Assembly (NCBI GenBank): GCA_009739215.1
Contig: VSJF01000007.1
Coordinates: 1,488,001-1,552,000 of the forward strand
DNA: 64,000 bases
From: Floccularia luteovirens
Lineage: Eukaryota > Basidiomycota > Agaricomycetes > Agaricales > Squamanitaceae
Direction: 5' to 3'
Below, piece by piece: positions 52,251 through 54,857 of the stretch. Made by a program: the position numbers and the translations under genes. The stretch's first letter is position 1. The number at the start of each line of letters is the position of its first letter. The notes beneath the pieces are model-generated. The model saw nothing but the letters and a program-made list of their open reading frames with translations. It searched no databases and had not been told where the DNA came from.

Positions 52251-54857
52251 TCACAACTTCGCCACCGCTTTTCCTTTGAACGACGCAAGCTTTGTCCGCT
52301 TCATGATCCTGCAAATACAATCACATGCTCAGTCTTAAAGTTGTCATGACACCCTTTGCCAAGTATAAATCTCACCCAGAATGGATTATCACTGATGGTG
52401 TCTCTCGAGCACCCTCAACCGCCACTCGTTCTTCAATTGGAACATAGTCGCGCTTACCCGCACCGACATAAATCTGCACCGGCAAGGATAAACAACTCCG
52501 GATCAAACCTGAAACGCGTTTTTAAAAAGTTGTCACGCTTACCTGGCGTGGCCTCCAAATTTTCACCCCTCCTTCTTGAAGCATCATCTTTGATTGTGTC
52601 ATCGCTTAGTTTAGGTCGTTTTATATATGGTAACGCGACTAACCTGACGCCAATGAGCAAGCCACCCTACCACACGAGGGACTGCAAAAAGCACAGGGAA
52701 GAAATCAAGGGGGAATCCTGATTTGGTGGTCAGAAGGACACCGTGATGGGATCAGGTTATAGTTCTAACCCATTTGAAGATAAATTAGTCCACTTCAAAA
52801 AGCCATCAGCATTGCTTTCCAATACATATCGAAACATCAAAATTACCTCCTACGTAACATATCAACATATCAGTCTAGCAACATGCGTACAGTGCATAAA
52901 CACGTACCAGTAATCCACATTTGGGGCCAGTTTTCGTGAAACAAAATATTCATCCTTCATTGCAGCGTCGTGAAGAGCCAATGCTGTGTCGAGAAGCTCA
53001 TTTTTTCCGGTGCTGCAAATCTATGTTAGGCAGGATTCACCGGATTCAACTCGGGCGTACATTTTGAATACCTCGTCAGCAGTCTTTCTGACAATGAAAG
53101 ACCGAGGATCCGACTATGAGGATATCAGCGTGACCCTTCATGAACCCCCAAAAGTTACACACTGTTTTGTATACGCGGTGCCCAAATCCGGAAAGAACCT
53201 TTTCGCGCCTCTTGACAGCCTCAAGGAAAGCTGGTACATTTGATGGCCTGAATCCAGTTGAGAAAGGAATATTCGTAAAGCTTCTACTCCACTTACTTTC
53301 CAATAGAAATTAGCATACGGATGACAGCTTCATTTGCGCCACCTGAAGACAAGTCAATCCAGACTAAAGAAAGATCATTACACAGGGGAACTTACCATGC
53401 AAGGGTCCGCTGTTCGAATGTTTATCCATCAAGTCACTTCGCTGCACATGATCAATACTCACTATAAGGAAGCACACCCAGCCCTAAAACCCCCGCAATT
53501 AATAATACAGACACAAAAATTAAGTAAATAACTTTACGCGATAGCAGAATAAGGATCGACCAACGAACTACCGGTTTGTAAGACTGTGGTTGATGAGGCA
53601 TTCAACTCGTGATCTGCATGAAGTAAGAAAAGCGTATCCAAGGCTTTCTCGAGGACTGGGTTCGGCACGTAATCCTCCTGTCCTAAATGATCCATTTGGT
53701 ACAAGAAGCTATAGCAAATATTTACCCGGAGAAGGCGTGAAGAATTCCGGGGGAGGCAACTTACGAGCCGGTGTAGCTCAATCCCGTGGGCGGGATCACA
53801 AACTCACGGCCTTGGCGGACGCGATAAGCCATACTAGCAGCATAAATTCAGTTAGCTGTCGGATTCTGGAGTAACCCGGACATATAGGGGAGGAACTAAC
53901 GCAGCGAGTGTAGTAGCTTTTCCAATCAACCTGTAAATTTGCTTATCCATCACTGCGAGAGACGCCTTGTCTCCCTTTGTATAGAGTGTTTGGCCTAGAT
54001 GTAAATATTCAGCGATTAGTGGCCTGATGTATGCTTTCCCCGGGCTTACCTTGCAAGGACGGGTTGGCCTCGCCGTAGTAAGAACCGAGGTACGCGAAGG
54101 CACTCGTCAGAATGGCCATAGGGTGAGCATCGTAGCTATAAGGACATAGAAGGCATTGTAAAGATGTGAGCGTTGTACCTAACGGAAGCCAACCCACCGG
54201 AATGAACGGCAGAATTGTTCAGCGTCTGCATGAGTGATGCCATGATGGAGTACCTCGCCCTCGAACTCTTTGAACTGGGATTTGGAAGGTAAGTTGCCAT
54301 AGATCAAAAGATATGCTATTACGTATCGGTCACATTTAATATTAATATAAGTGCAGGAGCTTTAACCACGCACCAGTTTCTAGATGTGATGAATGCAGAG
54401 CCAGTTGCTCAATAGGGTAACCTCTGATGTAGCGCCAGTATAAATTAAGATCAAAGAACCAGTAAGTGTCTCGTACCTGTAACGAAGTACTAATAGATAT
54501 GATTAGTTGATGTAGTATCACAGCACTTTTGAAGTCCCTACCTCCTGCTTCCCCATCTATGTAGGTTATTTGACTTCGAATGACGGCGGTGTTCAGAAAC
54601 CCTTTGTCTGATACACGTAAACCCTTTTCGGTTTCATTTTCCTCTCGTTCGCCAGGTGCAGATGGGGCCTTCATGACTTTGAAAGCAGTAGCCGCAATAC
54701 TGTTGTCAACGATTCTGTAATAATAAATCACTGTAAGTTATTAAAATTCCACCAGGGTCTTGTGCATGACGTACGGAACATCATATACCTTGCCTGTACG
54801 GTTATCTCGCACAGTAAGGCTGTAACTTGCTGATGGGTTTTCTATTGGACGGCCCAT
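52251..54857 (-). CDS. Citrate synthase, probably peroxisomal (PTS1 -AKL)
   Basis: ATG at 54857 (MGRPIENPSASYSLTVRDNR) has no mitochondrial presequence; upstream the frame is open for some 20 codons but has no ATG. Family blocks are VDNSIAATAFKVMKAP, YRGYPIEQLALHS, MAILTSAFAYLGSYYGEANP, the active-site His in LLHADHELNASSTTVLQTGSS, GGANEAVIRML, GHRVYKTSDPRSFI and the catalytic Asp in KLAPNVDYW. The product makes citrate from acetyl-CoA and oxaloacetate. The last intron (GTGAGA donor) leads to IMKRTKLASFKGKAVAKL and stop at 52251. The terminal AKL is a PTS1 tripeptide, as in glyoxylate-cycle isoforms. The Trp-Ser following NVDY requires a 3-nt exon (see separate entry). Confidence 0.9.
52770..52792 (-). 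other. 23-nt exon of citrate synthase
   Basis: Acceptor gaag ending at 52793 and donor gttaga starting at 52769 bracket 23 nt that supply most of SGLIYLQMG. The flanking introns are 52793-52846 (54 nt) and 52718-52769 (52 nt). Family continuity on both sides supports it. Confidence 0.75.
52847..52849 (-). other. Predicted 3-nt microexon of citrate synthase
   Basis: On the minus strand the bases gag lie between acceptor acgtag (end of the 58-nt intron 52850-52907) and donor gtaatt (start of the 54-nt intron 52793-52846). With it the spliced protein reads NVDY-W-S-GLIY, matching the family's conserved Trp-Ser-Gly after the catalytic Asp. Skipping it keeps the frame but turns Trp-Ser into a single Cys. 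Confidence 0.6.

What the first reader, a model, noticed from the sequence alone, without database searches (positions are those of the whole stretch)
52718..52907. 3-nt microexon at the citrate synthase active site, next to a 23-nt exon
Right after the catalytic Asp block NVDY, the bases gag (52847-52849, minus strand) lie between a good acceptor and donor. Including them yields Trp-Ser-Gly, conserved in citrate synthases; skipping them gives Cys-Gly with frame kept. Because both outcomes are in frame, splicing could make two enzymes differing at an active-site-adjacent position. Three introns of 52-58 nt and exons of 3 and 23 nt are packed in 190 bases.
Basis: partly seen in the sequence, partly recalled or inferred. 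Interest (0 to 1): 0.75.

Follow-up and report, generated by a model that had tools for sequence, protein, structure and literature searches.

The report
Three-base exon in citrate synthase
A mushroom-type fungus keeps part of an important serine codon of its peroxisomal citrate synthase on an exon only three bases long; the exon looks real and is probably always included, and many public gene models of related fungi appear to miss it.

Summary
On the minus strand, GAG (52849-52847) is a 3-nt exon between introns of 58 and 54 nt, followed by a 23-nt exon and a 52-nt intron. It is exon 16 of 21 of a 493-aa citrate synthase ending in -AKL (peroxisomal type) and completes Trp and Ser of NVDY-W-S-G. 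Shuffles of the stretch yield such an exon in 0.045% of trials.

Of 46 transcript-like homologues from unnamed mushroom-type fungi, 45 read W-S-G, 0 read the skipped C-G, and 1 runs into the upstream intron. C-G appears only in annotated genome models (55 of 152 in a query-biased set), best read as missed microexons; other models break off in ways that fit the microexon's splice sites. C-G or W-R models come from eight Agaricomycete orders, so the exon is probably old and constitutive. Two paralogues in the same genome have no intron there. Codon-sized microexons are already reported in fungi (Tuber) and misannotated microexons in plants: a new member of a known kind. No RNA from this organism and no relative's DNA was available; a regulated two-enzyme switch is unlikely but not excluded.

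The parts
52847..52849 (-). 3-nt microexon GAG (exon 16 of 21): last base of the Trp codon and first two bases of the Ser codon
52850..52907 (-). intron 15, 58 nt, GTACGT...CGTAG, CTGAT branch-like motif at -21
52793..52846 (-). intron 16, 54 nt, GTAATT...TGAAG, CTGAT at -14; weak acceptor
52770..52792 (-). exon 17, 23 nt (rest of Ser, Gly-Leu-Ile-Tyr-Leu-Gln-Met, part of Gly)
52718..52769 (-). intron 17, 52 nt
52908..53012 (-). exon 15, 105 nt, ends ...Asn-Val-Asp-Tyr-TG
52251..54857 (-). whole citrate synthase gene from start to stop codon, 21 exons, 20 introns, 493 aa, C-terminus -AKL
   Evidence: PF00285 matches over the cut-off at window 53534-53725 and 52644-52736
54477..54489 (-). exon 3, 13 nt, another very short exon of the gene
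53463..53483 (-). exon 10, 21 nt
53396..53409 (-). exon 11, 14 nt

Best explanation
GAG at 52849-52847 is a constitutively included 3-nt microexon of an intron-dense peroxisomal citrate synthase gene. Each short flanking intron is recognised as a unit and removed by ordinary GT-AG splicing, probably one after the other because a 3-nt exon can hardly hold both sets of splicing factors at once. Inclusion completes Trp and Ser of NVDY-W-S-G in the first turn of the helix that holds the Asp. The arrangement is old in Agaricomycetes, and the C-G proteins in databases are gene predictions that missed the microexon. Shown: sequence, frame, uniqueness of the in-frame model, W-S-G in transcript-like relatives. 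Inferred: inclusion in this organism, order of splicing, age.
For: Spliced alignment picks it; chance 0.045%; the only two-intron model of four that adds an in-frame exon; 45 of 46 transcript-like relatives read W-S-G and 0 C-G, 43 of the 46 on contigs with no room for the introns; 98 of 100 other rows have Ser-Gly; 23 annotated models keep W and then depart, 22 of them as read-through of a GT right after TG or after GAG would allow; C-G or W-R models in eight orders; a single 115-nt intron would be outside the 48-69 nt of the gene's other introns.
Against: No RNA from this organism and no relative's DNA. 55 of 152 annotated models read C-G and 16 read C-S-G; if some rest on RNA, skipping or another structure is real there. 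The database is clustered at 90% identity, so a skipped transcript can hide behind a W-S-G representative. Intron 16 has weak sites. One bacterial structure has Thr for Ser (4tvm), so the Ser is not strictly universal. The score margin of the microexon model is small. One W-R model (P0248) does not fit the GT read-through.
Confidence: 0.92

Rival explanations
1. Regulated cassette microexon: inclusion (W-S-G) and skipping (C-G) give two citrate synthases that differ next to the active site.
For: Skipping keeps the frame; the intron-16 sites are weak; C-G is deposited for many species (55 of 152); switch-like microexons exist in fungi (PMC11121469; Tuber NLRs in PMC10197012).
Against: 0 of 46 transcript-like sequences read C-G, although the C-G query would rank them first; Ser-Gly in 98 of 100 other rows; skipping would replace two residues by one in the helix next to the Asp.
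Confidence: 0.04
2. Not a switch between enzymes but partial splicing: retaining intron 15 or 16 truncates the protein (W-Y-V... then stop, or W-R-stop), lowering the amount of enzyme.
For: Both retention products stop early; one transcript-like relative, P0033, runs into the upstream intron; intron retention is the commonest event in S. commune (PMC5034255).
Against: 1 of 46 is as expected from ordinary background; no sign of regulation was seen.
Confidence: 0.1
3. No microexon: one 115-nt intron (52907-52793) is removed always, and the enzyme is C-G.
For: Simplest GT-AG model; annotated models of 55 listed relatives are of this form.
Against: Transcript-like relatives, Ser-Gly conservation, intron length outside the range of the gene, and models that break off at the microexon's own donor.
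Confidence: 0.03
4. Other single introns: a non-canonical TA-GA intron that leaves the same three bases, or a 109-nt intron from donor 52901 giving W-Y-V-G.
For: The TA-GA reading keeps W-S-G, as seen by reading the sequence; the 109-nt intron is what the aligner takes when the microexon sites are masked.
Against: TA-GA is no known intron class (recalled). Donor 52901 scores -1.2 bits against 9.6 for 52907, and W-Y-V-G is not what transcript-like relatives show.
Confidence: 0.02

Closest known systems
Conserved, often misannotated microexons of plants, 1-15 nt (PMC8831610, passages seen)
   Same: Tiny coding exon, mostly included, missed by annotation, loss changes the protein
   Different: Fungal gene with 48-69-nt introns; citrate synthase does not occur in the text of that paper
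3-bp microexons of Tuber melanosporum NLR genes (reported in PMC4986451 and PMC10197012, passages seen; the original paper not seen)
   Same: Codon-sized exons in a fungus
   Different: There alternatively spliced to diversify a receptor; here one exon in a metabolic enzyme, with no skipped transcript found
Xlr2 20-nt switch microexon of Trichoderma virens (PMC11121469, passages seen)
   Same: Fungal microexon missed by the gene model
   Different: 20 nt, glucose-dependent inclusion shown by RNA; no such evidence here
Small exons of Phanerochaete chrysosporium P450 genes, down to 6 bp (PMC1184071, passages seen)
   Same: Agaricomycete, introns of about 50 bp, very short exons
   Different: Twice as long or more, other gene family
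Arabidopsis glyoxysomal citrate synthase 3 (PDB 9x0i, 9xau, 9xdg)
   Same: Nearest solved relative of the orthologue P0188 by sequence and by fold, 49% identity; reads PNVDFYSG
   Different: F-Y-S-G in place of Y-W-S-G; exon structure of the plant gene not looked at

Membership tests
coding microexon | internal exon of 30 nt or less flanked by GT-AG introns | tested here: met
   3 nt, introns 52907-52850 and 52846-52793
coding microexon | present in spliced RNA of the organism | not testable with these tools
   No RNA of this organism; relatives' transcript-like proteins carry the residues
conserved constitutive microexon | same exon in relatives | tested here: inconclusive
   Inferred from C-G and W-R gene models in eight orders; no relative's DNA read
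conserved constitutive microexon | inclusion dominates in transcripts | tested here: met
   45 of 46 transcript-like relatives W-S-G, 0 C-G, 1 intron-retaining; other species, and 90% clustering may hide minor forms
regulated switch microexon | skipped isoform seen in RNA | tested here: not met
   0 of 46; this organism itself not tested
regulated switch microexon | both outcomes keep the frame | tested here: met
   Skip product is full length less one residue
citrate synthase (PF00285) | match over the Pfam cut-off | tested here: met
   Two exon matches of this gene over the cut-off; relatives carry PF00285
bacterial citrate synthase equivalogs of NCBIfam (NF004126, TIGR01798) | score over the curated cut-off | tested here: not met
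   452.8 against 505 and 422.9 against 485.15 bits
peroxisomal citrate synthase | SKL-like C-terminus and peroxisomal relatives | tested here: met
   -AKL; relatives end mostly AKL, SKL, GKL or TKL and many are named peroxysomal citrate synthase; the signal rule is recalled
peroxisomal citrate synthase | location in peroxisomes | not testable with these tools
   needs microscopy or fractionation

The most novel reading that the evidence does not exclude
The 3-nt exon is a deeply conserved splicing checkpoint: its weak second intron and the need to splice in sequence make a regulated share of transcripts either skip it (C-G) or keep an intron (W-R-stop or a short tail, losing the C-terminal part and the -AKL signal), so that splicing sets how much active peroxisomal citrate synthase mushroom fungi make, for instance between carbon sources.
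Probability: 0.08. Interest if true: 0.65.

Novelty: new member of a known kind. Interest (0 to 1): 0.36.

Why it matters
It is a clean test case for how a spliceosome with short introns handles a 3-nt exon, and it points to a repeated annotation error: many deposited Agaricomycete citrate synthase models lack a conserved serine, break off after the Asp block, or carry intron-derived residues there. Correcting this matters for structure prediction, enzyme expression and comparative work. By itself it shows no new mechanism.

Tried and rejected
Two-enzyme reading: a C-G query was used to bring up C-G transcripts; the C-G rows listed are all annotated genome models (120 of 899 matches were listed). 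Relatives in viral contigs: none confirmed. Paralogues with the same microexon: the one at C20:1120537-1121831 reads NVDAHSG and the one on C16 NVDATSG, without an intron there. Other two-intron models between 52907 and 52793 with introns of 40 nt or more: of four, the 14-nt and 11-nt exons run into stops and the 0-nt one equals skipping. Errors of mine that were mended: one search gave 58 of 60 because two proteins were cut at the wrong NVD (105 of 105); one search used 60 of 103 eligible rows; one search read the paralogue loci on the wrong strand (mended); one search printed the intron-15 retention product in a wrong frame (right frame: NVDYWYVFMHCTHVARLIC, then stop); one search binned P0138 and P0258 wrongly (one search has the corrected counts). 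The 35 sequences were chosen among those with xSG, so their invariant Ser is partly my selection; the 98 of 100 is the fairer count. The 16 C-S-G models are not explained.

Full report
What is there. The window lies in a 27-Mb, 22-contig genome (G000:C20:1488001-1552000). On the minus strand, 54857-52251, is a citrate synthase gene. Joining the exons gives 21 exons and 493 aa, ending -AKL. Five of the 21 exons are 23 nt or shorter: 13, 21, 14, 3 and 23 nt. It gives the third base of Trp and the first two of Ser: NVDY-W-S-G-LIY.

Is it more than chance? In 20000 dinucleotide shuffles of the 115-nt stretch, 7.6% hold some AG-NNN-GT with 44 nt or more on each side, 0.045% one that restores W-S-G, and 0.005% one with YAG and GTR as well. 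Of the four two-intron models with introns of at least 40 nt, only the 3-nt one adds an in-frame exon; two run into stops and one is empty, which equals skipping. All 105 homologues tested choose it, but these were picked for carrying xSG (15 of 120 left out), so that count supports the position and not the residue. The margin over the next model is small, 2 to 7 raw units. Against the 17 other introns of the gene the flanking introns are normal in length (58 and 54 nt against 48-69); their sites range from the strongest donor (intron 15) to a below-middle donor and a weak acceptor (intron 16).

What transcript-like relatives show. Three protein searches listed 120 rows each, of 7998, 899 and 311 matches. 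From them I took the jgi and lgn rows of mushroom-fungus type (78% identity or more; all such rows) on contigs under 2.2 kb, 46 in all. 43 of the 46 are on contigs with no room for the introns their length would span, so they should stem from spliced RNA; for P0006, P0020 and P0029 introns could fit (the contigs themselves were not seen). 45 of 46 read W-S-G, 0 read C-G, and P0033 runs on into the upstream intron (NVDFWYV...). Because one search was queried with a C-G protein, C-G transcripts would be expected near the top of its list; the C-G rows listed there are all annotated genome models. The database is clustered at 90% identity, so a minor skipped form can hide.

What annotated models show. 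Of 152 annotated models that I picked as Agaricomycete from the three listings, 55 read C-G, 52 W-S-G (47 of them intact just after), 16 C-S-G, 3 W-C-G, 23 keep W and then depart, and 3 are unreadable there. The set is biased by the C-G query and gives no frequency. Of the 23, four end in W-R (Meripilus, Cerrena, Trametes versicolor, Serendipita indica); that is what GAG followed by GTAA, GTAG or GTGA gives when read on, as in this window, where retention of intron 16 gives W-R-stop. Nine go W-Y, three W-C, two W-S, one W-W, all possible by reading through a GT after TG. After W-R, 7 of 8 continue as a codon starting with T could; P0248 does not fit. C-G or W-R models were seen in Agaricales, Polyporales, Russulales, Thelephorales, Hymenochaetales, Sistotremastrales, Cantharellales and Sebacinales (models; orders). 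I infer that the arrangement is old in Agaricomycetes. No relative's DNA was read, and I do not know which models rest on RNA.

Function. Of the 100 rows that are not among those annotated models, 98 have Ser-Gly at this place, one is P0033 and one is unreadable. In a 35-sequence alignment, chosen among xSG proteins, Ser393 and Gly394 of P0188 are invariant and Trp392 is not. A bacterial structure (4tvm) has Thr for Ser. A predicted model of the orthologue P0188 (mean pLDDT 82.6) has a helix at 389-399 that holds Asp390, Trp392 and Ser393; that this Asp is catalytic is recalled knowledge of the family. Skipping would put one residue in place of two in the first turn of this helix. The nearest solved structure is Arabidopsis glyoxysomal citrate synthase 3 (49% identity). 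The protein ends -AKL and many relatives are named peroxysomal citrate synthase. NCBIfam's bacterial models match below their cut-offs. The paralogue at C20:1120537-1121831 reads NVDAHSG and the one on C16 NVDATSG, both uninterrupted at this place.

Mechanism. The best reading is constitutive inclusion by ordinary intron definition; removal of the two introns one after the other is an inference from size. Retaining either intron truncates the protein, and skipping keeps the frame. In Schizophyllum commune skipping is 1% of coding alternative splicing events and intron retention the commonest type, although a junction-based count in the same paper gives 1,527 skipping events inside coding regions (PMC5034255, passages). 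In Coprinopsis cinerea intron retention and alternative splice sites are the major types (PMC10532568, passages). If splicing here has a second outcome, intron retention is likelier than a second enzyme.

What is known. Microexons of 1-15 nt, conserved, mostly included and commonly misannotated, are described in plants (PMC8831610, passages). In fungi, codon-sized or 3-bp microexons are reported as alternatively spliced in Tuber NLR genes (PMC4986451 and PMC10197012, passages; original not seen), a 20-nt switch microexon in Trichoderma (PMC11121469, passages), and exons down to 6 bp in P450 genes of Phanerochaete (PMC1184071, passages). A search for papers holding both 'microexon' and 'citrate synthase' listed two, on retinal disease and on neuroligin (listing only). 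The library holds only open-licence PubMed Central papers, so this does not show that the exon is unpublished.

Verdict. A real, probably old and constitutive 3-nt exon: a new member of a known kind, with a useful side finding about public gene models. The two-enzyme idea is unlikely on present evidence and easy to test.

Noticed in passing
proteins (for example P0008, P0121, P0129, P0143, P0038, P0041, P0067): Many deposited Agaricomycete peroxisomal citrate synthase models are probably wrong at this place: 55 of 152 C-G, 4 ending in W-R, 19 others departing after W.
   Followed up: partly
P0162, P0163, P0167, P0168, P0179, P0201, P0217 and nine others: 16 annotated models read C-S-G, neither the skip nor the inclusion product; this would need a three-base piece ending in AG with C or T first, perhaps a neighbouring acceptor. 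Unexplained.
   Followed up: no
54489-54477, 53483-53463, 53409-53396: The same gene has three more very short exons of 13, 21 and 14 nt.
   Followed up: partly
L001 (G000:C20:1119240-1122674) and L002 (G000:C16:1274900-1278397): Two further citrate synthase genes in this genome, reading NVDAHSG and NVDATSG with no intron at that place; the second looks diverged.
   Followed up: partly
about 51986 downwards, minus strand: Next gene on the same strand starts about 265 bases after the citrate synthase stop; by eye it begins with a signal-peptide-like stretch and is Ser/Thr-rich further on.
   Followed up: no
P0033: The only one of 46 transcript-like sequences that runs into the intron before the microexon, on a contig too short to hold the other introns.
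   Followed up: partly
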